A stretch of DNA of 64,000 bases. Source: Ascaphus truei. Its lineage: Eukaryota; Chordata; Amphibia; Anura; Ascaphidae. The position numbers were made by a program, and so were the translations under genes. Where the stretch lies: positions 290,595,141-290,659,140 of the forward strand of contig CM071567.1 in assembly GCA_036426205.1 (NCBI GenBank), in the 5' to 3' direction. The notes under the pieces are model-generated. The model searched no databases and was not told the DNA's origin. It saw only the letters and a list, made by a program, of their open reading frames with translations. Of this stretch, positions 4,207-59,598 are shown piece after piece (position 1 is the first letter of the stretch; each line of letters opens with the position of its first letter).

Positions 4207-5390
4207 ATGAGTGCACAACTGCAGTCCATGTTCCAAAAACCCGACAGAACATACGCTTATTTAATATGGGCCGCGATTAATGCAACAGATGATAAGATGG
4301 CAACAGTTGTTCAAATTTATCAGTATTTTATCGAAAACTATGACTTTTACAAATTTTCGCCAGATGCTCATGTGTGAAAGCGTGCAATAAGGAAAAAGTT
4401 ATGTAGCGATCCATGTTTTTTCGTATTGATCCCGATGTTATTGAAGGGTATTTGTGTGTATCACAGGGTTTTTCCCGTATCTATGATCATGGAGACTGCA
4501 AAAGGCGAAAGGTCGTGTTAAAACCAAACTAAGAAACGTCAGTCGCTGGCAAGCAAAGCGACAGCGGCAGCTTCCAATGACGGTCCGACCGTCAGTGAAA
4601 ACCTGGTAACCGGCAACCCTTGCTGTCTGTTCCCACATGGATACCTGCAGCCTGAGCTGGATTTCGCGTACAGATTCGAGCAAGCTTGCATGTACCTAAG
4701 CGATTTCCTGCCTCATCAGCTGACTTCAGGTGTAGTAGTCCCGCTGTCACCTATCAACGACGTGTACTGTATGATCAAGAATACGGGACTGGCAGTGGCT
4801 CGGCGCCAGTTGATTGGGAAAGTCTATGGTGAGTAATGTTGCCGTATTTTATTCTGTTTTTTTTATTTTGAAAATATCAATATCAATGCGATTCAAAAGT
4901 CAAGCGATTCTCCTGTAAGCAATATCATTGGCTGAGCAGCTTCTACAGTAGATACTGCACAATTGGTGAAAAGCTAGGCGCATGCGCATTGTGACCTTCT
5001 TGAAATGCATATGCATGTCATCACATCGACGGTAGGCACATGCGCATGTGAACAGGAGACGCCCCCCGAGAAAATTATTGGTGGGACTGACTGCGGGAAC
5101 TTCTTTAGGGGACTGACTGACCATTACAGTAAAACTTTTACTTTTTTTTGTTCCTCAGAAAAGAAAACTTTGCCATCTCATGCGGAAAACGGCAAATGGA
5201 GGGATTTCGATGGATAATATCGCTTTGTGTTACAATGCCTGCACATTGCTGAATCTGAGTTAAAAAAAACAAGTACCGGAGTCTACAGTTTAGTGGCCGT
5301 TGTTATTGATTAGGATAGAATACCTGAAACAGTATGATGTTGTTTTCAGACCATATACAATACTTTTTTTATATATACTGTATAATAAAC
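4207..5390 (+). pseudogene. forkhead-like winged-helix gene, copy A
   Basis: The start is set by a strong Kozak context, CCCACCATGA, at 4207. The N-terminal 100 residues resemble a forkhead domain: RTYAYLIWAAINATDDKMA (helix 1 and following), IYQYFIENYDFYKF (helix 2), KRAIRKKL at the recognition-helix position, then CFFRID and IYDHGDCKRRK in the wing region. Forkhead proteins bind DNA in the nucleus; a role as transposon-end binder is inference. TGA replaces a Trp codon near 4375 (copy B has Trp). Exon 1 ends at a GT donor at 4829, exon 2 starts after CAG at 5158, and AATAAA lies at 5384-5389. Frameshifts disrupt the acidic tail. Confidence 0.7.
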
Positions 5391-5509
5391 CCGAAAAATT
5401 TAAAAGTATGCATTTATTCTACATGTATTCCAGTACATATGGGTATTATACCCGTACAGCATGTATTGTTGTAATACTCTTGTGATGTGCAGTACTGAGC
5501 ATGCCTACA

Positions 5510-5725
5510 GTATACAGTACAGTATGCCTGGACAGTACTGTACATTATGCTCTAGAAACACTGTATTTTGTTACAGTATAAAAGGAGACAATGGAACAAT
5601 TTAAAACAAATCAACATTTTCTTTTATTGGTGGAGTAAGTACAAAAACATTAATTTACAAATACAATGTAAAAACATTTTAAGTGAACAGCAATTCAAAA
5701 CATCAACAGTTGTATGGTTTACTGC
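5510..5725 (+). repeat. subterminal repeat flanking the BEN/transposase pair, copy A
   Basis: This block matches the 200-bp inverted repeats that flank the BEN/transposase pair in copy B (26007-26205 and 29915-30108). Shared landmarks include AGTATGCCT, CTTTTATTGGTGGAGTAAGT and CAGCAATTCAAAACATCAAC. It is more diverged here. It separates the forkhead-like gene from the BEN-like gene, as in copy B. The partner at the other end of copy A is missing because that end is truncated. Confidence 0.65.
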
Positions 5726-5745
5726 TAGTGAAAACATTTATGTAC

Positions 5746-6400
5746 AGAAAGTTAAAACATTTACAGTCAGTCAGGCCTGCACAACTCCAGTCCTCGAGGG
5801 CCACAACCTGCCCCGGTTTTAAGGATAACCTTGAAAACCGGGCCTGTTTGCGGCCCTCTGGGACTGGAATTGTGCAGGTCCTGTGTACAGTAAGGAAAAA
5901 CATTTCTTTATTAATACAAGTTAAAACATGCAACATTTCCTTTATTAAAATACAGAAAGTCAAAACATGTATAGCACAACAGTATGGTGTTATTAAAACA
6001 AAATCTTTATTCATAAAATGTAAAAAACGCAACATCTCCTTTATTAAAGTACAGAAAGTCAAAACATTTACAGTAGGATGTTGTACAGAACAGTCAGTCA
6101 GGCCTGCACAACTCCAGTCCTCGAGGGCCGCAAACAGGCCCGGTTTTAAGGATAACCTTGAAAAACGGATCTGTTTGCGGCCCTCGGGGACTGGATAAGT
6201 GCAGGTCTTGTGTACAGCAAGTAAAAACATTTCTTTATTAATACAAGTTAAAACACGCAACATCTCCTTTATTAAAGTACAGAAAGTCAAAACATGTACA
6301 GCACAACAGTATGGTGTTATTAAATTTTTTTTTTATTCATAACATTTTAAAAACGCAACATCTCCTTTATTAAAGTACAGAAATTCAAAACATTTACAAA
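5746..6400. repeat. tandem duplication of about 327 bp carrying a palindromic MITE
   Basis: Two copies of a roughly 327-bp unit lie in tandem (about 5746-6072 and 6073-6400). Each has one palindromic element (5772-5883 and 6099-6210) followed by the CTTTATTAA / ACAGAAAGTCAAAACAT blocks. The palindrome begins CAGGCCTGCACAACTCCAG, and its second half is close to the reverse complement, ending CTGGA..TGTGCAGG, a typical hAT-type MITE design. On the minus strand the blocks give several AATAAA hexamers downstream of the BEN-like gene. Confidence 0.75.
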
Positions 6401-6439
6401 AACATTTACAAAAAATAAACAACAGTTGAACAGTCACGC

Positions 6440-7743
6440 AAATGCAATCCCCACCAGATTGTCCTTGTACGGCCGATACCTTGTATGGCACAAAATGCCA
6501 TTAATGGAGTCTCGAACGATTTTCATTTAAGTATCTGTAATTGAAAAATTGCGCCACAATTCCTCCACAATAGTCCTTCTTAAATTTTCAGGAAGCACCC
6601 TTTTTTTCGCGATTTCCTTCGTAGTTCACATTGTAGACCCACCCGCAGTACACAAAGTAGGACACGTGGTGCTTAAAAATTAACATGGCATACTTATGGG
6701 GTAAACCAGCACTCATCACCCTATACCCTGAGTGCCGGTGGCAGCTCGCGCAGGATGATGTCGGGCACCGTATCGATGCAAGCGTATGTAGGTTGGATTC
6801 TGGAAGCAGGTGTTCTTCTGGGAGGAGGTGTGCTTGTGGCGGCGGGCGAGGGTAGGTTGTCTGGGAGGAAGCTTTCCTCCTGTCTTGGTCGCCGTGTTGT
6901 CTCCTGGCGTGGTCTTGACGGGGTTGTCATGTTATCCTCCTCCTCAACGGCATACATGTACACAAATTCTTCTGGTGGAGGGGGTGCGCTTGGTGTTGGA
7001 AGGCGGTCGAAGGTCCCATTCATCACATCCATGCCACCCTCCTGCTCCGGCGTCGGGGATACAGGGGCATGAAACCCGAGCAAATTATGTATCCCACGCT
7101 ATGTCAGTCTCTATCTTCTCCATCCGTCGATCCATCTTCTCCATCCGTTGATCCATTTCTGCATCCGTTGATTTATATTTAGCATGGTCTCTAAAAGCAG
7201 ATCTATCTTTACCAGCACTGTAGAGTTCTCGGGGATATCCACACTTATCCCATTCAGCATCCGGTCTAACAAGCTGCTTCTTGTGCATGGCGTGCTGTTG
7301 ACATCTGGGTGGATGGGTGCTACGGAGGATGAGATGGGGGTTCCATGGAGAGAAGCGGCAGCGTCGTCAAAGAAGGATGGAGGAGATGACCTGTGGATTT
7401 CCGGGAGAGAAGCGGCAGCGTCGTCGAAGAGGGATGGAGAAAGCGACCTGTTGATTTCCGGGCAAGAAGCAGCAGAGTCGTTTAAGTGTAAAGTGGTCTG
7501 CGAGTTCGATGGGTTGGCTGCCATTTGTTTTGCGTTGAGTGTACATCACCGAATTTCTTCTTGACATAATAAGGCTTACGTGTATTAAAACCCTTAGCCT
7601 TTTGGCAGAAGGTTTTCTTTATTGGCCTTAGCCTGTCGCTTTGGTCTTGGCTTGGAAACGGCTGCCGCCTTTCGCTTTTTCTGCGTGACAGGCACGGCAG
7701 AGGCGAGTGGCTTCTTGCATCCATAGAATCTGGGTTGATCCAT
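6440..7743 (-). pseudogene. BEN-like domain gene, copy A
   Basis: Degenerate counterpart of the open ORF at 28216-29715. It starts MDQPRFYGCKKPLAS at 7743 and has a Lys/Arg-rich N-terminus (KKRKAAAVSKPRPKR, a likely nuclear localisation signal). A Ser/Pro-rich repeat region follows (SLSPSLFDDAAASLPEIHRS), then a coiled coil (LKIDLLLETMLNINQRM type), an acidic/Pro linker and a C-terminal BEN-like domain at 6700-6440 (YAMLIFKHHVSY..NVNYEGNREKK). At least three frameshifts break it, near 7610, 7110 and 6590. It is transcribed divergently from the transposase; the two starts are about 250 bp apart. Confidence 0.72.
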
Positions 7744-7996
7744 GGAAGCAGATGGCACAATGCAGTATCTGGACAAGGGCAAGTTCAGATAAAGATCATC
7801 GAGTGGTGGGCTATGCAAAGTGTGTAACCTTTTATGCATGGCGACGTGGTACAGGTGTTGAAAGTGGGCGTACTCTAATGTGAGCCATAAACGTATAAAT
7901 ACACCATCCATTTTGTGTATTCACTGCAAATTGAATACACATCGACTAAACATCGAATATACATTCTTGTGTTTGTATTTCTTTCTACTCGCAGCA

Positions 7997-9664
7997 ATGC
8001 CTGTTAAAAAGTTTTCTAAGGATCTCAGCATGAGAATTATGGTGATGTACACGAGCGGACACCGAATTGCAGATATCCAACGCTGATTAGCTGCTTCTGG
8101 CCTCGTTGTGCCATCAACCACCGTGTGCTATCATGCATATGGAAAAAACAAACAACGCACGAGGACACCAACGGTAACTAACACGTAACTATATAATACA
8201 GTATATCTATTGTTTATATTGCTGCATATTAATAGAACTATTAATTGTGTAGACCTATCTTATTTTATAGTTATTTCGGTATATTTATATAAATACAGTA
8301 TATCTATTGTTTGTATTGCTGCATATTAATAGAACTATATATTGTGTAAACCTATCTAATTTTATAGTTATTTCGGTTTATTTATATTACTGCAATATAT
8401 CTATTGTTTATATTGCTGCATATTAATAGAACTATATATTGTGTAGACCTATCTAATTTTATAGTTATTTCGGTATATTTATATAACTACAGTATATCTA
8501 TTGTTTATATTGCTGCATATTAATAGAACTATATATTGTGTAGATCTATCTCATTTTATACTATTTTTACTGCAAATGATGTGCTGTACTTGTGGCCTAC
8601 TGCACTGTACAGTAACTTACTGGATTGTTGTTTTTCTGTACATTGTAGGAGACAACTCTTCTGGTCGACAAAACAAGTGAAGAGAATGATGAGAAGAGTT
8701 CATTAAGGGTCAAATACACTCTGCAGCAAAATCACAATCTCACTGTATCCCAGACCAGCATAAAGAAGATGAGACGCAGAATTGGATGGAAATATGGATT
8801 TGTGAGGTTAGTACTGGACAGTACAGGAGGTAAAAGTGTTTTTTAAGAAACTGTACTGTACCTATAAAATTATTCCTTGTCATTACAGAGCGTACCCTAT
8901 GATAAGGGATGTGAACAAGGATTGCATCTTCACTGACGAGTCTACTGTTTCGCTGGAGAGATTTGCCACATTTGCATTCCACAAAAAAGGTTGCATATCT
9001 ATGAAGACGCGTCCAAAACACCCAGTGAAGATGCATGTGTGGGGTGCCATCTCTAGGCCTGGACCAGGATGCATTGTAATCTTTGAAGGTACAGTAAAAT
9101 GTATGTCACACGCTTTTGCCTTATGCACTGTACTGTACTTGTGTGCAGTTTTTTGAGCACTTTTCTTTTCTTGTTATAGGAATCATGAATAAAGCTTTCT
9201 CCAAGAGAAAATTGTGCCTGAGTTTGTGGAATACATCACATGTGAGTTCCCGGATGGTCACCGTTTCTACCAGGACAACGATCCAAAGCCCACTGTGTCA
9301 ACAGCGCATATCCTTGAGCGAGTTATCAACTGGGTGAAGATGCCAGCGGAGTAAGTGCGGTAACCTTGTCTCATTTTTTTCCCACTGTTTTTACTGTGTA
9401 CTGTATCTCTTTAACTAATTGTCCTTTTTTTCCCCCTACAATGACAGATCACCAGACTTCAATCCTATCGAAATGGTCTGGCATCATCTGAAGGACCATA
9501 TCCGAAAAGTCGTGAAACCCTCCAAAAAAGATGAGTTGGCGCAGGGCATACTGAGTTTTTGGAAGGATATATTCACCGTGGAACGATGCAATAAACATAT
9601 TGACCATATTGCGACTGTGTTGCCCATTGTGATAGCGCGTAATGGGAAAGCATCAGGAAGGTAG
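7997..9664 (+). pseudogene. IS630/Tc1-type transposase with four introns, copy A
   Basis: A DDE transposase of about 307 residues in five exons: 7997-8173, 8649-8806, 8889-9088, 9180-9350 and 9448-9664, with GT-AG introns and compatible phases. Exon 1 has an N-terminal helix-turn-helix (MPVKKFSKDLSMRI..YTSGHRIADIQR) and matches copy B in length (177 nt). The catalytic acids are IFTDEST (exon 3), DNDPKPT (exon 4) and SPDFNPIE (exon 5); about 32 residues separate the last two. The C-terminus (DELAQGILSFWKDI..ARNGKASGR) is typical of the DDE_3 family. The start follows a possible acceptor, CTCGCAG. A TGA at 8083 replaces Trp, and a 1-base frameshift lies in exon 4. Confidence 0.85.
8200..8580. 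repeat. 97-bp tandem repeat inside transposase intron 1, copy A
   Basis: About four copies of a 97-bp AT-rich unit. GTATATCTATTG or its variant recurs near 8201, 8298, 8395 and 8492, and each copy carries GCTGCATATTAATAGAACTA and TTTTATAGTTATTTCGGT. The array fills most of intron 1. Intron 1 of copy B holds a different tandem array. Confidence 0.85.
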
Positions 9665-10890
9665 CATGGTATAGTACTGTACTGTAGTATTGTAAGTACA
9701 GTATGATACAGGTAAGTATGGCATAGATATATAGACTAGTTTGGCAGTACTAACTGTATACTGTTGTCCAATATGGAGAAGCTATACAGTACTCAATACC
9801 ATAAAATGCACCTAACTGCTCAATTTTTTTCTTTCCTATGAGAGCAGCACCAGCCATCTGGTTACAAAGTATTTAACAGTAGTTACAGTATACAGTAGTT
9901 CCAGTATAGACTAGTTTGACAGTACTATACAGCACACATTGCCATAATACAGTATGCACATAACTGCACTAATTTTCTGTTTTCTTGTCTTTTCAGAAAC
10001 CAAGGATGGACTGGGGGAGAGGGGGGTATCGTGTAAAGTTTGTGAACTGTTTGTACAGTTAAGTATCTAAACTGCAGTCATGATGTACACAAAACCTCTC
10101 CTTTCTCAATGAACTACTGTACTGTACACAGAATGAGGAAGAAGATAAAGACGGAAAAAAATTATATTATATATATATATATTATTATATATTATATATT
10201 ATTAATTAATATTATTATCAATTCATGATAATCATAATCATTGACAACCCCCCCCCCAACACCTACACCAAAGAAAAAGAAAGAATGACAAAAAGTGGTA
10301 ATTTACTGCATCAACAACATGAATCAGATAATGCTTTTTTTTTAACTCTCAATTTCACATTGCTGTGCAAATCAGATTTACATATCAAATTCGAGAAGGG
10401 ATTATCAAAAGCGTTACCGTAAACAAAGCCTCAATTGTTGGGGGGGTGGATGGGTGAGTCATGCGCAGTAATCATCAGCTTGCTCCCTTCCCAAAGAGGA
10501 TTACAGAGAGGTGACTCTAAGCCAACAATAGGAAGATTAGGCACTCAGGCACAGAGAGGTGATGCTCGGCTAGGGACAGATGATTAAAAACATAATGGCA
10601 AGCTTTAGAAATGGAATGGCTCTGGAGAGGTTTCTGTCGGTAAGAAGTTCAAATCCTTGAGCGAGCCTTGTGTGTGTGCTTGGGGGAGGGGGGTACAGGG
10701 CACAGCTGCATGAAGGATTAGCTGTACTGCAGTTCAAAGAAATGGCATATTTTCAAAAGGCAGGTCATCATAATAATTTGATCCCTACACCCCCAAATAC
10801 TGTACATAAAAAGCACACAAATCAACCATGTGCAGTCAAACGCACAGTGTCGCAGTCAAAAGCTACAGCACAGATTGAATATCGTAATAT
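9665..10890. other. 3' flank of transposase copy A
   Basis: No gene. It contains dense ACTGTAC/GTACAGT motifs, an AT microsatellite at 10160-10215, and a block (10310-10804) that matches 26540-27090 of copy B in inverse orientation, including AAATCAGATTTACAT and CATCATAATAATTTGAT. Homology to copy B ends near 10804. The next 90 bases, up to the LINE tail, are unassigned. Confidence 0.6.
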
Positions 10891-10894
10891 TAAA

Positions 10895-11407
10895 ACTTTT
10901 TCTCGTTATGCACCATCCAGACTTTTGCGTTCTTCTCAAGGATGTCTTCTATCTACCCCCTTCATATCTAAAGCCCTCTCCCGCCTTAAACCTTTTTCAC
11001 TGACTGCCCCACACCTCTGGAATGCCCTTCCCCTCAGTACCCGACTAGCACCCTCTCTATCCACCTTTAAGACCCAACTCAAGACACACTTGCTTAAAGA
11101 AGCATATGAATAGCACTGTGGATATTCTGAACACATGATACATAAAGCTTGGCCCCCTGCAGACGCACTTACCAGAACTTCCTCCTACTGTCTCGGTACA
11201 TTCTCCCTACCTACCAATTAGACTGTAAGCTCCTCGGGGCAGGGACGCCTCTTCCTTAATGTTACTTTTATGTCTAAAGCACTTATTCCCATGATCTGTT
11301 ATTTATATTATCTGTTATTTATTTGATTACCACGTGTATTACTACTGTGAAGCGCTATGTACATTAATAGCGCCATATAAATCAAGACATACAATACAAT
11401 ACAATAT
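10895..11407 (+). mobile_element. L2-clade LINE, 3' tail
   Basis: The last part of a non-LTR retrotransposon. The + strand encodes the C-terminus of the pol ORF with the L2/CR1-group signature FSLTAPHLWNALPLSTRLAPSL..FKTQLKTHLLKEAYE, stopping at 11113. The 3' UTR follows, with GCGCTATGTACATTAATAGC and a terminal ATACAATACAATACAAT repeat. Two longer relatives lie on the minus strand at 21746-23520 and 40875-41935. The 5' truncation is the usual outcome of target-primed reverse transcription. Confidence 0.88.
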
Positions 11408-13324
11408 CAAGATGGTTTAGGCAGGCTTGTGGAGAAAAAAAAAAAAAAAATGAGGAGAATTTTTTTTTTTTTTTGTCACTCACTCTTGAACTTCGCAAGC
11501 AAGCAAGTGGTGAACTTACAGACGCATGCGCAGTAATCATCAGCTATCAAGCAGGAATGTGATTGAAACCAGAAAGACACACATTCAAAGGAATGGTGTG
11601 GGAGAGGTGTACTGTACTGTAGATAAGATAAGAATTTGAATTACTGCAGTGCTGTAAATTATCCTGTGTGTGTGCGGAGGCGAGCATGGGGAGAGCGCTG
11701 TATATGCTGAAATGTGATACAGTTACAGTACTGTACACGGCTATGCATTTCAACAATTTTAAAATGAGACATACAGCACTGCAAATGCATGTATAATATG
11801 CAAATTTACAATTACTGCGCGCACACACGCAGAATGTGTACTGACGTAGGTTGAACTGCTAAAGTATTAGACATCGAAGACAAACGCTCGCGAACGCGCC
11901 CCTGAGTTATTAGACGGTATTGCAGTATTACAGACAGCGCTAATAAAAAGCTAATTTTACGGGCGCTAAAATACCGCAATACACTCCGGACAAAAATAAA
12001 ATGCATCTGGCGGCGGTTATAAGAATTGCGTCACTACGGCCGCACGAGGCTAAAGGCGGCCGCCACTGTAGAGTAGTCAGTAGGAAAGCCGAGTTCAGGA
12101 GCCAGAGGGGGTATTCAGACGAGCCGGGTCAATAGCTGTAGGAAATAAACACAAAGAGAGCACGACACAGATTCCACGCAATACAGGTAGCAAGGAGCTA
12201 TGCAAGGAAGTGAAAGCAAAGCAGGACATTTAAAGCGGCAAGGACCAATCCGGACGAGGGGCATGGTGGGGGCATGTCGAGGAGCTGCTTGTGAGTAGCT
12301 GAGATACCAGGAAGTAGTAGAGCACAGCTGAGTTGCTGGAGATGTTGTGAAGACTCCCATGCCGAGCGGGGGGGCGTAGACAGGCATAATGCACGCGCAA
12401 AAAATCCTAGAAGGAAGCACGCGGTCTGTAACACCAGCGCCAGAATCCAAGATGGCGGCCGCGGCGGAGTTCAAGGTACGCGCTGGGTGGTGGCATGGGT
12501 AGCGACGGGGGGCAGCGGCCGCTGCAGTACTGGTAGTGGGTAAGGAGGGGTCACGCCGCAAGGGACATGGCCCCCGATTCCTTAAATAGACATACTGTAC
12601 ACGCATGCACGGAATAAATATTTTATATTCGGAAGAAGAGGCGACGTTGTCGTTTTGTATTACTCCTGTTCCCTTTATTATCCTGTACGAATATAACATT
12701 TAATTAGTTAAAAATACTTTTTGTTGTGTATGCTCATATTTTTAATCTTCTACAGTTAAAGGATTTGTGTATGACTATGGAGCTTCAGAAAGGCCTTCAT
12801 CACATGTACAATATACAGTATGAACTCGTAGCGTTAATCTTCAAATTACAGTACAATTACTCACACACACTTGAGAACTGTACGGCAATAAAAGACAGGC
12901 TAAATTGCACTTAGATTTTTAAATTTTAAGGCAACAACTCGCGATCAACCACTTGAGTTTCTCGACGGTATTGCAGACCGCTAAAATGTCATTTTCAACA
13001 CCCGATAAAAACACTAGTAATCACGCATCTTAACGCAGGAAAGTTTGAAGAAATCATGCGGCACGACATGGGTATGCCCAGGGATACAAATCGTGAAATG
13101 TTTGGATAATAGCCATTTCATCTGTATAATATGCAATTTATATCACTCATCTTAATGTTTATTGTGTTCTGGTCTTTGGGATTTGGATGACGGGGCAGAA
13201 TGGGCCTCGAAAAGTCCTGAATGTCCAGCACCGGGGTAGTGACACTAGGGCCGGTGACTGGGCTTAAATACATCTAGCAACTGGGACACAGTAAGGTGCT
13301 TCTTCTCCCTTTATGCTGGGTACT
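11408..13324. other. unassigned, with a CpG-rich block
   Basis: No supported gene. A/T runs lie at 11432-11475. The CATGCGCAGTAATCATCAGCT block near 11525 also occurs near 10463 in copy A. 12100-12580 is G+C- and CpG-rich with AAGATGGCGGCCGC and a minus-strand ORF without recognisable motifs; it could be an old LTR on the minus strand, but I see no matching partner. A GACGGTATTGCAG block appears near 11913 and again near 12964. Confidence 0.4.
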
Positions 13325-26205: not shown

Positions 26206-27210
26206 ATGGTTAACTGCTACAGTACATGTGTGAAAACATTTGTCAGTCAGTATGGTTTACAGACATGTTTTAAATACAATACATTCTTTAATATCTTTAA
26301 AATATAAATATATAAATATAATTTAAAATAATCCGTTATTTTATTTTGGCAGGACCCAAAAAATACAAATATAAAAATAATCATGAATAATACATACTGC
26401 AGCCTTTATTAAATTCTTCTGGCAGATTGAAATCGGAGAAACATTTACAAACATTTGTAAAACATGGAGATACATGAAAAATGGACATTTATATGAATAT
26501 TAATTAATAATATATATGCTGTATATAGAAAATCTACTGTTTGTTTTTGGTGCCTGAGGCACAGGGAGTTAAAGTGACTTGCTTTTTATGTACTGTATTT
26601 GGGGGTTGTATTTGGGGGTTTATTGATCAAATTATTATGATGAACTGCCTTTTGAAATTACAGTACTGTTAACTATTTTAGCCACACACCTCCAGAGTCT
26701 TCATTTTCTGCAGTTACTGTACTTTAGTCATTGTGTTTTTAATCCGTCCCTAGCCAAGCATCAATCGGCTGACTGCGCCTGCGTGTACTCTAATCCTTTT
26801 AGAGATGGGAGCTTGCTGTTACAGCGCATGAGTCACGATACCAACCCTCTCTCTCCACAGACTCGTTAATCTTATGAATATTGCCATTGTGTTCTTAATC
26901 CGCCCATAGCCGAGCGACAAAGCTCAGTGCGCCTGCGTGTAATCACAAGTCCCCCCTCCCCCCCAACCCTTAGAGGCTTTTGGAAAATCCCCTCTCGAAT
27001 TTGAAATGTAATTGTAAATGTAAATCTGATGTGCACAGCATTGTTAGAATTGAGAGTAAAAAAAACATTAACTGATTCATGTTTTTGTTTGCGTCCGTAT
27101 CATGGGGTATGCTCTGTAATGAAAAGGAATAAAAAAAAATTAGCGGCACAGTACAGTACAGTTTACTAAACAACACTTTTACAGTACCTCATGTACTGTC
27201 CAGTACTATC

Positions 27211-28058
27211 CTCACACGTCCATATTTCCATCCAATGCTGCGTCTCAACTTCTTTATGCTGCTCTCGGATACAGTCAGATTGTGCTTCTCCAGCAGAGTG
27301 TTTTTAACCCTTAATGCACTCCTCTCATCATTCTCCTCACTTATTTTGTCCACCAGAAAGTTGTCTCCCTACAATGTAAAGAAAATATATTGTTTTGTTA
27401 ATATGCAGCAATATAAAATGTACTGTATATAAATATAATGTTGTACTATAAATACAGTATAAATATACAAAATATATATACTGTTGTCATATAAATATAA
27501 ATATACATCCTATATATACCGTTGTACGATAAATAGAAATATACAAAAAATGTATACTGTTCCACTATAAATATAAATATTCAAAATATATATACTGTTG
27601 TACTCTAAATATAAATATACAAAATATATATACTGTTGTCATATAAATATAAATATACATCCTATATATACCGTTGTACGATAAATAGAAATATACAAAA
27701 AATGTATACGGTTTCACTATAAATATAAATATACAAACTACTGTATGTTGTAATATAAATCAACAGAAATAACAGTATTACTGTAGATACAGAACTGTAC
27801 TGTTCTGTATGAACAGTACAGTACGTAGTTTTCTATATTTTTTTTTGTTAAGTTTTATAAATATACTTACGCGTTAGTTACCCTTGGTGCCCTTTTGCAT
27901 TCTCTGATTTTACCGTGTGCATGATAGCACACGGTGGTTGCTGGCACAACGAGGTCAGAGGCAGCTAACCAGCGTTGGATAGCAGCAATTCGGTGTCCGC
28001 TCGTGTACATCTCCTTAATTCTCATGCTGAGCTCCTTTGAAATCTTTTTAACAGGCAT
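27211..28058 (-). pseudogene. IS630/Tc1-type transposase, truncated, copy B
   Basis: Exon 1 is 28058-27882 (MPVKKISKELSMRIKEMYTSG..IQRWLAASDLVV; 59 codons, no internal stop) and ends before GTAACT. Exon 2 is 27368-27211, 158 nt, the same length as in copy A (DNFLVDKISEENDERSALRV..WKYGRVR). The donor after exon 2 reads GATAGT instead of GTTAGT. The first 30 bases or so of exon 3 follow at about 27119, and then a deletion joins directly to 3' flank. All three catalytic acids are gone. The upstream extension from 28175 is probably not translated because a TTTCTACTCACAG acceptor lies just before the ATG. Confidence 0.82.
27420..27740. repeat. tandem array in transposase intron 1, copy B
   Basis: AT-rich subunits (ATAAATATAAATATAC plus a TACTGTTG or TACCGTTG spacer) organised in a higher-order repeat of about 152 bp: CTGTTGTCATATAAAT recurs at 27481 and 27633. 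It occupies the same intron as the unrelated 97-bp array of copy A. Confidence 0.8.
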
Positions 28059-28311
28059 TGCTGTGAGTAGAAAGAAATACAAACACAAGAATGTATATTC
28101 GATGTTTAGTCGATGTGTATTCTTTGTGCAGTCAATACACAAAATGGATGGTGTATTTATACGGTAATGACTCACATTAGAGTACGCCCACTTTCAACAC
28201 CTGTATCTGGTCGCCATGCATAAAAGGTTACACACTTTGCATAGCCCACTACTCCATTATCTTTATCTGAACTTTCCCTTGTCCAGATACTGCATTGTGC
28301 CACCTGCTTCC
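28059..28311. promoter_or_regulatory. probable bidirectional promoter between transposase and BEN-like gene
   Basis: The two starts diverge, and the spacer is conserved with copy A (7744-7996). It holds GTATTTATACGG near 28153, a TATA-like element read toward the BEN-like gene, and the 5' splice-acceptor context of transposase exon 1. Promoter activity is inference from position and conservation. Confidence 0.45.
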
Positions 28312-29715: not shown

Positions 29716-29821
29716 GACCATACTGTTGTGCTGAACTGTATTGTACTGTACATGTTTTGCCGTACAGTACCTGCTGTACTTAAACAAAGGAGATGTTGTT
29801 GTGTGCTTTTTTACACAGGAC

Positions 29822-30108: not shown

Positions 30109-30109
30109 C

Positions 30110-30820: not shown

Positions 30821-30999
30821 ATACTTTAGAACACACACAATGTAAATGATACTGTACATGTAGAATAAATGCATAGTTTTATTTTTCGGGTTTATTTCAC
30901 AGTATACTGTACGGCTGGAACAAGGGCAAAAAAACTGTAGACGTGGGGTTTTAAATCCGATTCAGCAATATGCAGGCATTGTCACACAACGCGATATTA

Positions 31000-40874: not shown

Positions 40875-41935
40875 CATTATTGTATTGTATTGTATGTCTT
40901 TATTTATACAGCGCCATTAATGTACATGGCGCTTCACAGTAGTAATACATGTGGTAATCGAATAAATAACAGATAATATAAATAACAGATCATGGGAATA
41001 AGTGCTTTAGACAAACATAACATTAAGGAAGAGGAGTCCCTGCCCCGAGGAGCTTACAATCTAATTAGTAGGTAGGGAGAACGTACAGACACAGGAGGAG
41101 GGAGTTCTGGTAAGTGCGTCTGCAGGGGGCCAAGCTTTATGTATCATGTGTTCAGAATGTTCACAGTGCTATTCGTATGCTTCTTTAAGCAAGTGTGTCT
41201 TAAGGTGGGTCTTAAAGGTGGATAGAGAGGGTGCTAGTCGGGTACTGAGGGGAAGGGCATTCCAGAGGTGTGGGGCAGTCAGTGAAAAAGGTTTAAGGCG
41301 GGAGAGGGCTTTAGATAAAAAGGGGGTAGAAAGAAGACATCCTTGAGCAGAACGCAAGAGTCGGGATGGTGCATAGCGAGAAATTAGGGCTGAGATGTAA
41401 GGAGGGGCAGAAGAGTGTAAAGATTTAAAAGTGAGGAGAAGAATGGAGTGTGAGATGCGGGATTTGATTGGAAGCCAGGAGAGGGATTTCAGGAGGGGAG
41501 ATGCTGAGACAGATCTAGGAAAGAGTAGAGTGATTCTGGCAGCAGCATTTAGGATAGATTGTAGGGGAGACAGGTGAGAGGCAGGAAGGCCGGAGAGCAG
41601 GAGGTTACAGTAATCAAGACGGGAGAGAATGAGGGCCTGAGTCAGAGTTTTAGCAGTCGAGCAACACAGGGAAAGGGCGTATCTTTGTTACATTGCGGAG
41701 GAAAAAGCGACAAGTTTTAGAAATGTTTTGAATGTGAGGGGCGAATGTGAGAGAGGAGTCGAGTGTGACCCATAGGCAGCGTGCTTGGGCTACTGGGTGG
41801 ATGATCGTAGTTCCAACAGTAATGTGGAAGGAGGTAGTAGGGCCAGGTTTGGGAGGAAGTATGAGGAGCTCTGTTTTAGCCATGTTGAGTTTAAGGCGAC
41901 AGAGGGCCATCATTATGTTCATAACAAATTATATT
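40875..41935 (-). mobile_element. L2-clade LINE, 3' half
   Basis: Minus strand. It opens (high end) with the RT C-terminal region, CRLKLNMAKTELLILPPKP and VTLDSSLTFAPHIQNISK (ORF 41922-41650). Next come the DYCNLLLSGLPASHL and LPIKSRISHSI segments at 41610-41450, then RLLRSAQGCLLSTPFLSKAL..FSLTAPHLWNALPL (41357-41169), the 3' UTR and the terminal TGTATTGTATTG repeat at 40880-40893. A frameshift lies near 41650. It is inserted just before the accessory gene's exon at 41949. Confidence 0.9.
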
Positions 41936-41948
41936 TTTAATGTTATAG

Positions 41949-42960
41949 CTGTGGATGATAAAACAGGCTCTGATTTGTCAACCCAAAATCTTGACGAATT
42001 GGAAAGTGAGGAGGAATTGGTTGAGGAGACACACGAGATTCAATCTTTGGAGGAGATCATCAAACATGAATATGTTGAGGCACTCCGAGAACTGGATGTC
42101 CCTGACCCCAATGATTCTACACCACAACTGTTTCTCGAGGGTTACAATCGGGACCAGGATATAACAGATCCTGAAATTAAAGATGAAGAGGACAGTGAGC
42201 CTCTCCAAGCAGGCCAAGGGGACAATAGGTGTACAGCTGAACTTGCATCATTAAAATCTGCTGAGGAATTGTTTTTCAAACATCAACAGTCTGTGGCATA
42301 CCACCAGCAGAAAACCAATCGGCCAATTTGTGAAGAACTAATGAACATGTGAGGCATTTTCACTCAACAACTGGATACTCCAAAGGCCATTTCTAATAGT
42401 TTAACTATTAGAGCACAATGTATGGCACAGCCACAGCCAACGGCACAGCCACAGCCAGAGCACAATCTGCTGTTAGAAGCACTGGCACTGGGACTGGCAC
42501 AGCCAACGTCACAGCCAGATTCAATGCCACAGCAACAGAAAAATCAACTATTGGAAACAGTGGCACAGACACTGGGACTGGCAATGCCACAGCCAATGCC
42601 ACAGACAATGCCACAGCAACAGGCATATCTACATCAAGAAACACAGGGACTGGCAATGCCACAGCAATAGGCATATCTACAGCAGAAGCACAATGACTGG
42701 CAATGCCACAGCAACATGCATATCTACAGCCAGAAGCACTGGGACTGGCACAGCCAATGCCACAGCCAATGGGACAGCAACAGGCATATCCCCAGCCAGA
42801 AGCACTGGGCAACCACAATGTACCATCCAAACTACTGTAGTGGCTCTAGCAATGGCCGAATGTGTGGCACCTACTTGTTCTACAGTACAGTATATTCCAC
42901 GCCTACCACTGAAAATGTGAGCAGATCAAGGCCTAACACCCGGTCTTCACAAAAAAAATT
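41949..42960 (+). pseudogene. Harbinger accessory protein, coiled coil and Gln/Pro repeats (copy 1)
   Basis: The exon begins after a TTATAG acceptor at 41948. First comes an acidic region (DELESEEELVEETHEIQSLEE, PEIKDEEDSEPLQ), then a helical segment (ASLKSAEELFFKHQQSVAYHQQK), then a TGA at 42350 and, downstream, Gln/Pro/Ala/Leu repeats (MAQPQPTAQPQP, LLLEALALGLAQP, MPQPMPQTMPQQQ) from a GCCACAGCAA-type minisatellite. Harbinger elements usually encode a Myb-like partner with a C-terminal coiled coil. The Myb part is not seen here, because the L2 insertion and unseen exons lie upstream. Position and counterpart at 61372-62786 support the role; the family is not identified. Confidence 0.5.
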
Positions 42961-43791: not shown

Positions 43792-44375
43792 ATGCCGTTA
43801 GAAATGTCTTCAAACAAGAAACCTCTGTTGTGTTACGCATATCTAATATATAGCGCTATTCAAAACCGAACAGAGAAAACAGCAACTGTATCAGAGATAT
43901 ATGAATACTGTATATTACTGCCAAATACCCATTTAATACAAATCATCCAAAGCCTCATATATGGTGAAATTTGATCAGACGGACAATCAAGCATTGATTG
44001 TTTTATTCTGAAGCCACTGTCCCCGGAAAGAGGGGTAGCAGTTGGTCACTGCATGAATCATGTATGTATATGTTTGCTAATGGACATTTAAGAAGAAGAG
44101 AGAGAAATTGTGAACCCAGCTACCATGATATAGGTGCCCGCAGAGGTGCCTTAAATGTTCCGTAAAATTGTTATTCTTTTCAACCGGAGGTGTACAACCA
44201 ATACCAGAACCATGACCGAGCAAGCTATGACGCTAACATGCATACTAACGATCTGGCTCAAGCAGATGAAATGCCACAAAGTAGCTATCGGTATCCACCT
44301 CAGTACATGACACAATATCCAAACTTTTACAGAGCAAGCTCCAACCCGATCGAGATGAACACACAGAACAATTGA
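43792..44375 (+). pseudogene. forkhead-like winged-helix gene (Harbinger copy 1)
   Basis: The ATG is at 43792 or 43804 (MSSNKKPLLCYAYLIYSAIQ). The forkhead pattern continues with NRTEKTATVSEIYEYC. A frameshift near 43920 breaks it, but another frame then shows a W..LIRRTIKH segment at the recognition-helix position and SSWSLHESC at the wing. A later segment (44192-44375: YNQYQNHDRASYD, YRYPPQYMTQYPNFY) resembles the Tyr/Pro-rich tail of copy 2 (YYDMYPNLYGQY). AATAAA lies at 44552. It is transcribed away from the accessory gene and toward the transposase. It resembles the forkhead-like genes of copies A and B only in the domain pattern. Confidence 0.6.
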
Positions 44376-46668: not shown

Positions 46669-48304
46669 TCACGATATGAGATCTTCTATGTAAAGGAAAA
46701 TCTTACAAGTGAAATAATTTTCGATTACACTCCGGCGGGTCACCACCCCACTGGCTCTATACTCCCAAACCCCTGCAGGAGGCACAGGATGATCCTCCTC
46801 TAGATCCTCCCAAATGTTTCCTTGAAGATTGTGATGTAGTGCAATGCAACAAAAAATCACTATGTCAGCAACCTTCTATGGCGAATACAGTAGGGCCCCA
46901 CCAGATTTATCAAGACATCTGAAGCGACTTTTCAACAGTCCAAATGTCCTCTCAATCACCGAGCGGGTGAGACGTGGGCCATATTATAACATTCTTCTGC
47001 AGGGGTTTGAGTATTACCCAGTGGGGTCAGGAGCCAGGGCCGGTTTCCATTTCCTGAGTCGCCTATAAGACAGTTAAAACACATAAATGTTGATATAATA
47101 CATAAAAAATATTCAAAACATTGCCTACTGACTTGTCCTAGTACATGAAAGTGATTTAAGAATGTTCCACACATGAAATTAAATACAATATTAATAATTT
47201 AATAGCTATGACATAGTGTCATGTGGACATCTGTTGAACATTATAAACATGACACCTCAGATGGCTATAGTATTAATACTGCAATACAGTATGTAAGCAA
47301 TTACTGTTTTGCCCACTAATTCCCTATTGTGTGATTAATAATTGATGAAAATTTAATGCTGCCTAACATGGATTATAGTTTTTGTATTAAAAAAAAAAAC
47401 ATATAAAAAATTTTAAATGATTTTTTGTTACATTATATATTATAAAAACAGAATTAAACATTAACCCGTACATGAACTTTAGATATAAGTGCAGTTTGTA
47501 TTACATTGACTGACCCAATAGCCAACCGTCCTTGGATTTCCCTGCTTCAAGTGCACGGAAGACTAAAGTGTTCTGCAGGATAAGGGAATCGTGGCAGGCA
47601 CCTGGGAATAGGGCTACCACACTCAGAATTTTCATGTTTGCGTCACATACAACTTGCACATTCAGCGAGTGGTAATGTTTCCTGTTACAGAAATGCCTCT
47701 CAATTGCACGTAGCGGGGTAAACGCAACATGTGTGCAATCTATAGCACCCTTCACATTGGGTAACCCTGCTACATTATAAAATGCAGTCTTCATAGCCTG
47801 CCACCCTGTAAGCTCACTAGGAAAATGTATATAACCCCTAGTGCGTCTAGTCAGTGCACATAGAAACTGGCTAAGGACCCGCAAGAATGTTGTCTGTGAG
47901 ACCTCATCTACTATGCCTACAGTTGTTTGAAAAGACGCAGAAGCAAGAAAATGTAATGAGCTCAGCAATTTAACAAGGCCAGGCACTGCATGACTCCTGT
48001 CTGTTATTGGCTCTAAATCTTCTCTTAACTCTTCATAGAGTTCCAAGATAACCTCTGAGCTCAATCGATAGTGGCTGATCACCTCGGCCTCACATAACCC
48101 CTCTAGGGAGCATCTTGTTCTGAAGTTAAGTGGTGCCAATGTATGCCTTACTTCTAATTTCCTCTTCCTCCTCTCCATCCTCAACCTCTTCTCCCTCTTC
48201 TCCCACCATTGCAAAATAATCTCTCTCCTCCTCCTCAATACGAACTCCATCACCGCATAATTGCATATGACCTCCATTTCACCATTCAAGGTAAGTGTTT
48301 CCAT
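46669..48304 (-). pseudogene. PIF/Harbinger transposase, two exons (copy 1)
   Basis: Exon 1 is 48304-47515 and exon 2 is 47062-46669. The intron has GTCAGT and TTATAG ends, and the split codon restores LLG-DSGNGNRPW. The DDE_Tnp_4 (HARBI1-like) catalytic residues are visible: GAIDCTHVAF, PGACHDS and VIERTFGLLKSRF. Other family signatures are RKHYHSLNVQVVCD and RPWLLTPLGN. The N-terminus is Arg/Glu-rich (RREIILQWWEKREKRLRMERR) before SHYRLSSEVILELYEEL. Exon 1 is fully open; a TAG near 46887 interrupts exon 2 after the third acid (copy 2 has Ala there). It is therefore nearly intact. Confidence 0.9.
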
Positions 48305-48899
48305 GTATCCTTTAAATTGGCAGACTAATCAACCACATTAGTGTTAACGAGACCACATGTGTTGTACAGTATCTAGAACATGTGAATTTTATTAATCCAA
48401 GCAGTCATTATAGTTTGAAAGAGATGCGTTGCACACATAATTTAAAATGATGTAATCCGAAAATAAACACCATTCATTAATTCAAAGTCAAAGCGATGAT
48501 GCGAGCCAATATTAATTATTGTTGTTAGAAATCATGACATTTGGATGTAATATGTTCAGTCACGAAGGTGCTAAATCACAAGAAGAAATTGATGCTTTCT
48601 AGAGAGGTGTGGCAGAAGCCTTGATTATTGTCAGGTTGTTTTATGATCACGGGAGTATTGCCCTTTAAATTACCCCCCTCCTAACGTTTGCGGTTACACT
48701 ATGAAATTATGAAGATGGATGTCATGCAATTGTACATAATTGTGATTCAATAACGGGTTCTCCTTCGATTCAATTAATGTGAATGATCTCCATGTGCCCT
48801 GGAGGACACAGAAATATTCACGACAGCACACTGTGACCTCCAGACACCCGTGAGGGCCACTCAAGGGCCCCCAGACAACCGTGGGCATCCCAGTTGGGT
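48305..48899. other. 5' flank of Harbinger transposase copy 1
   Basis: No gene. It contains the presumed promoter; no clear TATA assignment. GGGCCACTCAAGGGCCC near 48856 is a small inverted repeat. Confidence 0.4.
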
Positions 48900-49831: not shown

Positions 49832-50306
49832 TTTTTTTAAGAATTGTTTATTTTTTTGGGGAACACCATTGGTACCGCAGTCAAGCGGGGACCCCCGGAC
49901 TCCAACAGGGACCACCCGAGGGCTCCTGCAGGGATCACCTGGGGACACCCGACGGCCTGTTGTATGGATGGTGTGCCTGAAAAAAGGAAAACAAAGATTT
50001 TTTCCTAAGTCCAGCTTCAGTTTTTACAGAGCGTTTTTAAAGCAAGATTGAGTTAGCGCTGTTTAGAGAATCCCGTGGACTAGCACAATTGACACGTTTG
50101 CCTTTTTTGGCCTGATCTTGCGGGTTTTGCATGCAGGCCAGAAAAAAATGTATTTTAAGGCCAATAAAGTGCTGTTATCATTGCTTAGTGAATCGCGCAG
50201 CAGGAAGTATCGGACTTAAAGCCACTTTGCGCTTTTAAAATGATTTATCACTGCTTAGTGCATAGCCGGTGACTCTATGACTATATATATATATCTATAG
50301 ATATAG

Positions 50307-50660: not shown

Positions 50661-50667
50661 ATTTATA

Positions 50668-56389: not shown

Positions 56390-57250
56390 GATGCATGTAT
56401 TTATTGCTCCTGAGGAAGCTGCGGATGCAGTGAAACGCGTTGAGCTAAGCTAAGGAAGGAGACAGAGTACAGCTGCATCACAACCTGATGGTCTGATAGC
56501 CTGCTCCAACCCCAGAGGCACTGCTGCTGCGGCTCGTCGAGTCTTCCAACCCCCAGATCTTCCCGTCCTCACCGGAAGTCGTCACCCCCAGGCCAGGAAG
56601 TGACGACAGACGCCATCCATCCGGCACCGGACGAGGGGGCACCCTCGAGGAGGGGATCTCTGAGTGGAGTGGAGGACGTTCGATTTCCCTCTGCCAAGCC
56701 GTTTGTGTAGCTGCCTTATATTCAAAGAAACCTTTATGTGAATGTGCTCATACGTTACATTGTGAGTACACATTTTTATGCTACTTTTATGGCATTTTGG
56801 TGTTACCTGGTACACACTATGTTTCCCTCTCCTCTCTGTATGAATGCGGTTGCTGTTCTGTGAGAGCGAAAGCCCTGGCGATCACACTATCCAGCTTACC
56901 ATCATCAGTGACTGCTGCATGCTGCTATCTTAGGCGGAGGAATATATTATTCAACTTCATACACAAAAAACGCTGTTTTTTATCCTACTTCTTGTAAGTA
57001 GGCGATCCATAAGAGCCAAGTTTTTCCTGAATTTTGACCCATAATTGTCTTTAAGTACTACACTATGATTTGTTATTATATGTTTTTTCCTGGGTGTTCC
57101 TGACGATCCTGCTCCCTTCCTGCCCTGGATTCAAACGTTTTGTGAGAGAATCAGTGTATATTCCCTGGAAGGTTGAGAGTTTTTTTCAGTTACACAATAT
57201 ATTATTTAATATCACTATCACTGTGTTTTAGCGCCATACTGAATCACTGG
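56390..57250 (+). mobile_element. Penelope-like fragment
   Basis: A hammerhead-like motif at 56410-56440 (CTGAGGA, stem CTGC-GGAT-GCAG, GAAACGCGTTGAG), CACCGGAAGTCGTCACCCC and CAGGAAGTGACGAC at 56571-56608, and TTTTAGCGCCATACTG at 57228. The core CTGATGA is changed to CTGAGGA. No RT ORF. Boundaries are approximate. Confidence 0.5.
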
Positions 57251-58951
57251 GTTTCATGCATGTATTTCTAACAGAAATAATATAAACCAACATAATAATG
57301 TTGCATTTATGATTGGCCTCACTTAGCTATGTATGTGTTGAACGTTTACTAATAACACTAAACTATAGTTACTCGTGTGAATTAAATGTACACACAAATG
57401 TTCATGGTTAAATGATCTGTACCTAACATTCATTAGCTCATGCATGTTAGGTTATCACTACAATTTAGGTGATAATATAACACTCTATCACCTCCCTATT
57501 GTTATTGTGTACGTTCAGATACAATGTCTACGAGTTGTTACATTCTTTGACAAGTCACACGTGAGATTATAATATATAGTAGATTCATGTGTTTGCTGAG
57601 TGATAATGTTGGTTGCATATATCACATGGCAATACATATAATGTTAGTAGAAAAGAAAAAAATATCAATATACGTTCTAACTTCAGTGCTTAGCAACATC
57701 ATTATGATAATTATGTGCATAGTAAATATTTGCACAATAGGATAACATTATGCAGTGATTGTTAATCTGCGCACCAATCATTGCAAGCATTGTTACATAT
57801 TTATTATAATTGTTGTTCGCTAGTCGTCACAATCATCTAATATAACAATTGGCCCATCTGAAATCATACATTTGTCCCATGTATTCATCCTCGACATCTG
57901 TGAAATACAGCAAACACATGATGTTCAAAGATGGCACATTTATCTATGTCTCAGCATGACAACGCTTAACACATCTCTATATGATAGTGGATATTCACGC
58001 ATAAGTTACGTATATGTTTAAACTGCAAGGATAAAACTACAGATACAGAACTGTCTCATTTTTCAAATCGCATTGCTGGCATTACTACTGATATGTTTGT
58101 TCCAATGCCTGTATACATAATAATGTGTGCGCACAACGTCTGTTGTGCGTGCACGTCACGAATGTGTGGACTAAGTATTAGCGCATGTGCAAAACGATGT
58201 GTACGCTGTGCGTTCAATACATTTCCTTCCATGGTGCTGTTAGCATTACGCATATCATGGCTGAAAGTTATGATATGGAAGCGAAACAAATTCACTTCAA
58301 CACACGTACATATCTAAACTTTGTAAACGGACGTGTGCCCATGGCAAAAACGGACGATCAGCCAATGAGCGAACAAAATACGTGTGACGTCATGTTAAGG
58401 CACCATGAAATGCATGCAAACACCCGTCCCACTGAATGAACATTGACCTCCAGCGCTATGCACGCACCGCCCCACCGACGCGCGCACATGACACACTGCA
58501 CTGACCATAACAATAAGCTACGGGCACAGCCAATACTGTTTCATGCGCGCACGTCAGTTGGGGGTGTGGCTTGCATCGGTAACCTTTTTAAGGACGCCTT
58601 GGGACATGACCAGGTTCCCACATCATATGTGGGCGACACTTTGTTTTTATATGTTGAATGCTAAACAATGAGGTGTGTGTGTGTGTTACAGTTAGTGTAA
58701 CATGTTGAAATTATACTTTAAAAGCGATAAGCATCTATGATTTAGGACTCCGTCACCAATGTGTACTAATGGTTCGTCATGTAGCATATTGTTATAGGAA
58801 ATAATGTCTTTGTGCACGCAAAATGTAAGGCTGTCTGCAATGTTAAGCTGTATACACTCATTTGGCTAACAAATGGTGTATATTATTAATGTACACATAT
58901 ATAATTTGAGTAAAGGCATAACGAAATTTGTATTTACCATTCTTGTAGAAG
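57251..58951. other. spacer
   Basis: No gene. 58130-58160 has CGTCTGTTGTGCGTGCACG. The CpG content rises at 58440-58600. ORFs of 73-84 codons lack recognisable motifs. Confidence 0.5.
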
Positions 58952-59598
58952 TCAAAACTGATTTGGCTGCAACTGCTCGCTCCAAGAAGGCACAACAGTA
59001 TCATCTACGGTTGAGGCAACCGTTGAATCCTGAATCACACACATCTCCATGAGGGCGTCATATGGATCTGCAGTGGCTTCTTCAAACAAGACATCTGGAG
59101 GTACGTACAGTTGTTGGTTGTTTTCACATCCACATTGGTATTGCCCATATAAGTTTGGATACATATCATAGTAGTTATGTCCATCTTGCATCTGGTCTTG
59201 ATGAATGGAGGGTGCAGGTATATCAGCAGGCGCGACAGTCAGTGCGGCTTCAGTATAACTGGTATTAGGCAAAAATATGCTATTTAACAGAAGATATGTT
59301 CCATGGTAAGTTTAAATGATGGTGCAACATGCCAGCATCCATATAGTTGATCTAGCCGATCATGGACACGCTCAAAACATTCATTTGCGGATAAAGTGAA
59401 TCGTACAGAAGTTTTAAAATTTCGTTGTTTGTCAGGTTCTTGGTAGTATGGATATTTGTTTTGGATCAAGTCATAGATTTTGCCCACGGTTGCCCTTTTC
59501 TCTGGCGTTGATTCGATTGCTTCATAAATCATAAATTTGTATGATTTACGTGGATGGCCGAGCAATGTGGAAGCTTCTGCCATTTCTTCTCTCTTCAA
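58952..59598 (-). pseudogene. forkhead-like winged-helix gene (Harbinger copy 2)
   Basis: ORF 59598-59284 (104 codons) is a complete forkhead-like domain: KSYKFMIYEAIESTPEKRA, TVGKIYDLIQNKYPYYQ, NFKTSVRFTLSANECFERV at the recognition-helix and following position, then LYGCWHVAPSF at the wing. The start is MKREEMAEAS or MAEAS. A second ORF, 59272-58952, carries the tail: Pro/Ala-rich, then HNYYDMYPNLYGQYQCGC, then acidic (LFEEATADPYDALMEM). The two frames are separated by a dozen bases with a stop, so a frameshift or short intron joins them. No stop interrupts the domain. It is probably the best-preserved forkhead-like domain of the four. Confidence 0.7.

What the first reader, a model, noticed from the sequence alone, without database searches (positions are those of the whole stretch)
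4207..59598. Forkhead-type genes sit beside two unrelated transposases
Forkhead-like domains occur at 4207 (+), 31904 (-), 43792 (+) and 59598 (-). Two lie next to an IS630/Tc1-type transposase, two next to a PIF/Harbinger transposase, with order and orientation kept within each pair. The shared pattern is AYLIW/AYLIY-type helix 1, IYQY/IYEY helix 2, W(K)RAIRK or LIRRTIKH at the recognition helix, and a wing. The domains of the two groups differ strongly outside the core. This suggests repeated capture, or exchange, of a winged-helix DNA-binding partner by DNA transposons. I know of no description of this.
Basis: partly seen in the sequence, partly recalled or inferred. Interest (0 to 1): 0.9.

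Follow-up and report, generated by a model that had tools for sequence, protein, structure and literature searches.

The report
Frog jumping genes carrying forkhead proteins
In this frog-like genome two unrelated kinds of DNA transposon each carry, in many copies, their own gene for a forkhead DNA-binding protein, and those forkhead domains appear to share a single origin, which suggests that the gene passed between transposon types.

Summary
All four forkhead (FKH) domains pass Pfam's cut-off, and the one modelled folds as a FOX domain. They are genes of two kinds of DNA transposon. Family A is IS630/Tc1-like: termini mostly preceded by TA, DDE_3 transposase, unknown ~512-aa ORF2, FKH. Family B is PIF/Harbinger: DDE_Tnp_4 transposase convergent with FKH. 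In the 2.82-Gb host genome, the best-scoring Harbinger transposases (140) and B-type FKH genes (150) give 39 pairs within 10 kb, 0.15 expected, all 39 convergent. ORF2 (86) and A-type FKH (150) lists give 7 pairs, 0.09 expected, six in the A layout. Seven of 7 further A-FKH loci reach the same 5' terminus.

Transposon FKH domains form one side of a tree against 19 FOX domains (99/95), favouring one capture followed by exchange over repeated capture. The A FKH-transposase link rests on a few loci: the A1-type transposase top-150 list did not pair with FKH or ORF2. Function, an element-coded DNA-binding helper or transcription factor, is inferred. Three protein searches found relatives only in Ascaphus truei. 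Eight paper searches listed no description.

The parts
3927..12068 (+). Transposon A copy 1 (IS630/Tc1-like); 3' terminus TA|CAGTGGCGGCCGCC (read inwards) at 12068; 5' end not resolved
   Evidence: Matches A2 in inverted order; 3' part also in L028 to the same terminus
4207..4833 (+). Forkhead gene of A1, broken (in-frame stop after 4374, then a frameshift)
6588..7920 (-). ORF2 of A1, broken; homologous to A2 ORF2
7997..9661 (+). IS630/Tc1-type transposase exons of A1 (MPVKK..., ...FTDEST..., ...YQDND..., ...PDFNPIE...)
   Evidence: family DDE_3 by joined exons of other copies
26340..32326 (-). Transposon A copy 2; 5' terminus TA|CTGCTGCGGCAGCC at 32326; 3' end degraded and uncertain
31299..31904 (-). 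Forkhead gene of A2, 201 codons, one in-frame stop
   Evidence: Pfam 5e-14; 150 scored copies, 84-94% identical apart from itself
28216..29715 (+). ORF2 of A2, open; C-terminus looked BEN-like by eye, not confirmed
27870..28058 (-). Transposase N-terminal exon of A2, divergent from ORF2; the rest degraded
43792..44372 (+). Forkhead gene of Harbinger element B1, broken by frameshift and stops
46702..48328 (-). PIF/Harbinger transposase of B1 (pieces 48328-47504 and 47084-46702), convergent with FKH
   Evidence: DDE_Tnp_4 2.4e-12
41738..42670 (+). Probable third gene of B1 (C-terminal part only; residues 1-58 of the ORF look like an unrelated repeat)
   Evidence: tblastn matches in L018, L026 and L028 upstream of FKH
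50245..50270 (-). Right terminus of B1, ACCGGCTATGCACTAAGCAGTGATAA here, GGGGGCTA[CT]GCACTAAGCAGTGATAA in L013 and L014
54240..55457 (+). PIF/Harbinger transposase of B2
   Evidence: DDE_Tnp_4 7.2e-19 on 54963-55457; 54240-54650 has no Pfam match by itself
58955..59583 (-). Forkhead gene of B2 (domain 59583-59287; acidic, tyrosine-rich tail in another frame 59311-58955)
   Evidence: Pfam 1.7e-19; AF2 model pLDDT 80.8 and Foldseek forkhead matches
61372..62372 (-). Probable third gene of B2 (C-terminal part); a Myb/SANT-like exon by eye lies outside the window at L044 2724-2999(-)
   Evidence: Pfam finds no significant match
63275..63670 (.). Miniature element with A-like inverted termini, TA on both sides
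   Evidence: copies in L019, L026, L031

Best explanation
The forkhead genes are built-in genes of two DNA transposon families: an IS630/Tc1-like family (A) and a PIF/Harbinger family (B). Shown: their fixed place behind the 5' terminus of A, their genome-wide pairing with B transposase in one layout, many copies without stops, and a grouping apart from the FOX domains tested. Inferred: a transposon once took up a FOX gene, the cassette later moved from one transposon type to the other, and the small protein (FKH domain plus a short tail) works as the element's own DNA-binding accessory, either recruiting transposase to element ends, as the Myb/SANT protein of Harbinger is thought to do (recalled; PMC4482050 calls that function unknown), or driving the element's promoters. 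The recognition helix has changed in family A and in the B2 copy of the window, which suggests retuning to new sites.
For: Family A. Seven of 7 further A-FKH loci (L034-L040, the next best in the list after the window's own) match A2 to one 5' terminus; TA precedes it in 8 of 9 distinct copies, L034 being the exception. L041 holds FKH, ORF2 and transposase exons together. Four of 4 ORF2 loci (one is the window) have the transposase N-terminus beside them. ORF2 x FKH lists: 7 pairs within 10 kb, 0.09 expected, 6 in the A layout, the window's own included. Family B. 39 pairs within 10 kb from 140 transposases x 150 FKH, 0.15 expected, 39 of 39 convergent. With the Pfam-only FKH list of 129 (not independent of the former): 12 pairs, 0.13 expected, 12 of 12 convergent. 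By percent identity FKH type and transposase type agree in L014 and L018 (B1) and L021 (B2), slightly in L013. Selection: pairwise dN/dS FKH A 0.58, B1 0.46, C 0.33, against B1 transposase 0.45. Fold: forkhead, best E 9.3e-7. One origin: 99/95.
Against: The top-150 list of the A1-type transposase pairs with ORF2 once and with A FKH twice within 12 kb (0.11 and 0.19 expected), none in the A layout, so the A transposase link rests on a few loci. In 20 sampled FKH loci (one of them a true FOX gene) a Harbinger transposase was found near 6. In L024 the transposase is closer by identity to the other B type (61 against 56%). No A copy was read with both termini, and the left end of B1 was not found. 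The canonical forkhead motif is not enriched at the A termini (hits 0, 0, 0, 0, 1); at two B right ends 0 and 3. dN/dS on copies picked by protein score is biased low; A1 against A2 gives 0.75-0.82, inflated by frameshift, and B2 gives 0.86 on 3 copies. The zero at the 21 best FOX hits is a weak control, 0.02 being expected by chance.
Confidence: 0.72

Rival explanations
1. Repeated capture: each transposon type took its own forkhead gene from the host, and the likeness is parallel.
For: The A, B1, B2 and C domains differ strongly outside the core, with a branch of 1.4 changes per column for A; not every FOX class was in the tree; the longer loop also occurs in FOXO1 and FOXM1.
Against: One side of the tree at 99/95 and 99/99.
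Confidence: 0.15
2. Passenger gene: the forkhead is a host gene fragment carried along (Pack-type element) with no role in transposition.
For: Many copies are broken; Pack-type DNA transposons are reported in animals (PMC8277862, search listing and start of abstract only); the C copy L025 may be a 1.4-kb element with only a FKH gene.
Against: By my count of the rows 112 of 150 scored A copies have no stop inside; B1-type copies stay recognisable at 57-92% identity apart from the query itself; dN/dS like the transposase; one layout in 39 of 39 pairs.
Confidence: 0.15
3. Host forkhead multigene family that has merely collected transposon insertions nearby.
For: The genome has 21 hits of 107 bits or more, taken as ordinary FOX genes, and one weaker hit (L009) is a true FOX gene; none of the 21 lies within 10 kb of the 140 listed B transposases, though only 0.02 would by chance.
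Against: Single orientation in 39 of 39 pairs, shared terminus in different flanks, thousands of first-look candidates.
Confidence: 0.03
4. The forkhead protein is a transcription factor for the element or a decoy of host FOX regulation rather than a partner of the transposase.
For: Small protein with a forkhead domain and acidic or Q/Y-rich tail; the C group largely keeps the canonical recognition helix WKNSIRHNLS.
Against: No enrichment of RYAAAYA at the A termini tested, 0 and 3 hits at two B ends; promoters not mapped; the recognition helices of A and of the window's B2 have changed.
Confidence: 0.35

Closest known systems
PIF/Harbinger transposons (PHIS superfamily)
   Same: DDE_Tnp_4 transposase, and a second element-coded DNA-binding protein; PMC4482050 (passages read) states that additional ORFs code Myb/SANT proteins, Yqaj in ISL2EU, of unknown function
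   Different: A forkhead gene convergent with the transposase; the word forkhead has 0 occurrences in that paper's main text
IS630/Tc1/mariner transposons
   Same: DDE_3 transposase and TA at the termini
   Different: Roughly 8 kb with a multi-exon transposase, an ORF2 of about 512 aa and a forkhead gene; typical Tc1 elements carry only the transposase (recalled)
FOX transcription factors
   Same: Forkhead fold and domain; best-scoring solved relatives by sequence are FOXL2, FOXG1 and FOXC
   Different: Element-coded and multi-copy; longer loop before the recognition helix than most FOX rows, changed recognition helix in A and in the window's B2
Pack-type (gene-capturing) DNA transposons
   Same: Host-like gene inside a transposon (recalled; one listing)
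   Different: Here the gene is kept in many copies without stops, in one layout per family, in two superfamilies

Membership tests
Forkhead (FOX) domain | Match to PF00250 over the curated cut-off | tested here: met
   4 of 4 window domains, the B1 one marginal
Forkhead (FOX) domain | FOX fold | tested here: met
   B2 model pLDDT 80.8 from 4 sequences; the 50 Foldseek rows printed are forkhead entries
Forkhead (FOX) domain | Conserved N and H of the recognition helix (recalled as base contacts) | tested here: inconclusive
   Kept in most C rows and in L010, L021, L022; N kept in B1; both changed in A and in the window's B2
IS630/Tc1/mariner (family A) | DDE_3 transposase | tested here: met
   1.1e-13 on joined exons of L041 and L010, a chimera with guessed exon borders; window piece alone 0.12
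IS630/Tc1/mariner (family A) | TA target-site duplication on both sides | tested here: inconclusive
   TA at the 5' end in 8 of 9 distinct copies and at the 3' end in 2 of 3, never both ends of one copy; related miniature elements show TA on both sides
PIF/Harbinger (family B) | DDE_Tnp_4 transposase | tested here: met
   2.4e-12 and 7.2e-19
PIF/Harbinger (family B) | Myb/SANT second protein | tested here: inconclusive
   By eye an exon in L044; Pfam finds none there or in the C-terminal pieces
PIF/Harbinger (family B) | 3-bp TWA target-site duplication | tested here: inconclusive
   Right termini found, left ends not
BEN-domain protein (ORF2) | Pfam BEN match | tested here: not met
   No Pfam match up to E 10
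BEN-domain protein (ORF2) | BEN fold | tested here: inconclusive
   Single-sequence model, pLDDT 43, unusable

The most novel reading that the evidence does not exclude
A transposon captured one FOX gene and the resulting transposon-coded forkhead lineage then crossed between IS630/Tc1 and PIF/Harbinger elements, diversified its DNA recognition with each host element, and became a standing reservoir of perhaps thousands of forkhead genes in one frog lineage: an exchangeable DNA-binding module shared by unrelated transposases.
Probability: 0.5. Interest if true: 0.87.

Novelty: new variant of a known kind. Interest (0 to 1): 0.76.

Why it matters
Element-coded DNA-binding helpers are known in Harbinger (Myb/SANT) but their role is unsettled. 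A forkhead helper found in two unrelated superfamilies gives independent replicas of the same partnership, so one can ask what such helpers do. It also shows transcription-factor domains entering transposons, the reverse of transposase domestication, and a possible source of new forkhead genes for the host. Annotators should note that frog 'forkhead box protein' models can be transposon genes (P0001 is named forkhead box protein I2-like).

Tried and rejected
BEN domain in ORF2: suspected by eye; Pfam none at E up to 10, one meaningless weak PDB row at E 0.045, single-sequence model unusable; left as unknown. Shared promoter of A and C forkhead genes: one 19/20 match in L017 (0 of 200 shuffles), nothing comparable in the other C loci apart from L020, which holds a miniature element there; not used. 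TIR motif CACATACAG as B terminus: rejected because homology runs on beyond it. Forkhead motif at termini: no support. A1-type transposase list against A FKH or ORF2: no A-layout pair. Whole-window self-blast in one piece missed repeats and was redone in chunks. Copy-number estimates: only first-look candidate counts and capped lists exist, not true counts. No search of other frog genomes was possible.
Full report
Check. Pfam finds a forkhead domain at all four places (E 1.7e-19, 5e-14, 1.7e-8, 4.1e-6), and the transposases are a DDE_Tnp_4 type at 47.5-48.3 and 54.2-55.5 kb and an IS630/Tc1 type at 8.0-9.7 and 27.9-28.1 kb. The IS630 piece in the window scores only E 0.12 by itself; joined exons read from two other copies give DDE_3 at 1.1e-13 (a chimera with guessed exon borders). 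A model of the B2 domain (pLDDT 80.8) matches FOX structures; the 50 rows printed, of 104 at E 0.001 or better, are forkhead entries.

Genome. The window lies in a 2.82-Gb genome of 19,235 contigs. Protein relatives in the public protein set came only from the tailed frog Ascaphus truei: P0001, P0002 and P0003, P0004 and P0005, so the genome is probably Ascaphus or a close relative (inference). A Pfam forkhead search scored 150 of 12,894 first-look candidates: 21 hits at 107 bits or more, and 129 at 73-94 bits. At least one of the 129 (L009) is an ordinary FOX gene.

Family A. A1 (3.9-12.1 kb, +) and A2 (26.3-32.3 kb, -) match in inverted order. Order: 5' terminus, forkhead, ORF2 on the other strand, transposase, 3' terminus. 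The 5' terminus CTGCTGCGGCAGCC sits in different printed flanks in 9 distinct copies, preceded by TA in 8 (L033 is the window copy itself, L034 the exception). The 3' terminus CAGTGGCGGCCGCC is preceded by TA in 2 of 3 places (W 12068 and L028 yes, L015 no). No copy was read with both ends. Outside the window the family is abundant: A-type forkhead, 150 scored of 18,119 candidates, 84-94% identical apart from the window copy itself, 112 of 150 without a stop by my count of the rows; ORF2, 86 scored of 21,635 candidates; A1-type transposase, 150 scored of 11,389. Crossing the ORF2 and forkhead lists gives 7 pairs within 10 kb against 0.09 expected; 6 of 7, the window included, have the A layout. 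The transposase list gives 1 pair with ORF2 and 2 with forkhead within 12 kb (0.11 and 0.19 expected), none in the A layout. Against that stand L041, which holds all three genes, and 4 of 4 ORF2 loci (L029 is the window) with the transposase N-terminus adjacent. Seven of 7 forkhead loci L034-L040 match A2 up to its 5' terminus, L040 in several pieces.

Family B. The FKH-to-transposase stretch of B1 (43.3-48.8 kb) is colinear, in pieces, in L013, L014 and L018. The right terminus is shared by the window (50270), L013 and L014; the left end was not found. In 20 fetched forkhead loci, the first 20 hits under 95 bits on contigs C1-C20 (40 were planned), a Harbinger transposase lay within reach (2.5 kb upstream to 7.5 kb downstream) in 6 of 20, each time convergent. 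The stronger test came from whole-genome lists: 140 transposase places scored of 5,662 candidates against 150 B1-type forkhead places scored of 12,622 give 39 pairs within 10 kb (38 distinct transposases), 0.15 expected, 39 of 39 convergent; 44 within 15 kb, 43 convergent. Against the 129 Pfam hits: 12 pairs, 12 convergent, 0.13 expected; against the 21 best FOX hits: none, with 0.02 expected, so a weak control. B transposase or B1 forkhead against the A lists: 0 pairs except one B1 forkhead with an A transposase, 0.16 expected. By percent identity, forkhead type and transposase type agree in L014, L018 and L021 and slightly in L013; L024 points the other way (61 against 56%), L011 is partial.

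Origin. A tree of 22 transposon forkheads with 19 FOX domains (8 of them from this genome, 11 PDB chains) puts the transposon forkheads on one side at 99/95; dropping seven long or doubtful rows gives 99/99, with a bootstrap not fully settled. Twenty of 22 share a loop 2 residues longer before the recognition helix (not L012 and L027), and the group has a shorter wing than the FOX rows; FOXO1 and FOXM1, added later, also have longer loops. Best-scoring solved relatives are FOXL2, FOXG1 and FOXC. This favours one capture and later exchange. Caveats: long branches, and FOX classes such as I, J and R not knowingly included.

Constraint. Pairwise dN/dS (Nei-Gojobori, own script): A forkhead 0.58 (10 copies) and ORF2 0.57 (6 copies); B1 forkhead 0.46 (5 of 6 given), C forkhead 0.33 (7), B2 forkhead 0.86 (3), B1 transposase 0.45 (3); A1 against four A2-type copies 0.75-0.82, inflated by the frameshift in A1. 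Copies were picked by forkhead or ORF2 score, which lowers those values; the transposase copies came from loci picked by forkhead score.

How it may work. Each protein is a forkhead domain with a short acidic or Q/Y-rich tail. The recognition helix is canonical in most C rows (WKNSIRHNLS or close), partly changed in B1 (WKNSIRRTLS), and changed in A (WKRAVRKRLC) and B2 of the window (FKTSVRFTLS); B2-type L010, L021 and L022 read WKNT[IV]RHNL. I infer an element-coded DNA-binding helper, retuned in A and in some B elements. The canonical motif RYAAAYA is not enriched at the A ends (0, 0, 0, 0, 1 hits) and gives 0 and 3 at two B right ends, so a function at the ends is untested.

Literature. Eight full-text searches listed no paper whose title or abstract start describes forkhead genes in DNA transposons; several lists were cut, and single-mention papers such as PMC9341512 were not opened. 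PMC4482050 (passages only) reports Myb/SANT or Yqaj as the additional ORFs of PHIS elements, and forkhead has 0 occurrences in its main text. Subscription papers and Repbase were not searchable.

Noticed in passing
window 63275-63670: A 396-bp miniature element with A-like inverted termini and TA on both sides; copies in L019, L026 and L031.
   Followed up: partly
L015, L016, L017, L019, L020, L023, L025 around 2500 (oriented): A third forkhead subgroup (C) with the most FOX-like recognition helix; 5' ends TA|CAGATGCAACTGCC or close in three loci; no A- or B-type transposase found nearby. L025 2019-3404 may be a 1.4-kb element carrying only the forkhead gene.
   Followed up: partly
L010 8711-8284 and L027 9995-9830 (oriented): A-type transposase pieces on the strand opposite to B2-like or other forkhead genes, 6-7 kb away; probably separate insertions, not resolved.
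   Followed up: no
L041 3742-7378: A 1819-bp tandem duplication at 100% identity inside an A element, very recent or an assembly artefact.
   Followed up: no
window 8190-8560: Tandem units of about 97 bp in the first intron region of the A1 transposase; other AT-rich repeats at this place in L041.
   Followed up: no
window 33729-34407: A Tc1-type transposase (MPRRKDISN...) that looks unrelated to family A; a similar one in L016.
   Followed up: no
L044 2724-2999 (minus), beyond the window's right end: Exon that looks like the Myb/SANT domain of a Harbinger second protein, upstream of B2; Pfam does not confirm it.
   Followed up: partly
window 26008-26201 and 29914-30107: A 194-bp inverted repeat at 99% identity at and inside A2.
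   Followed up: no
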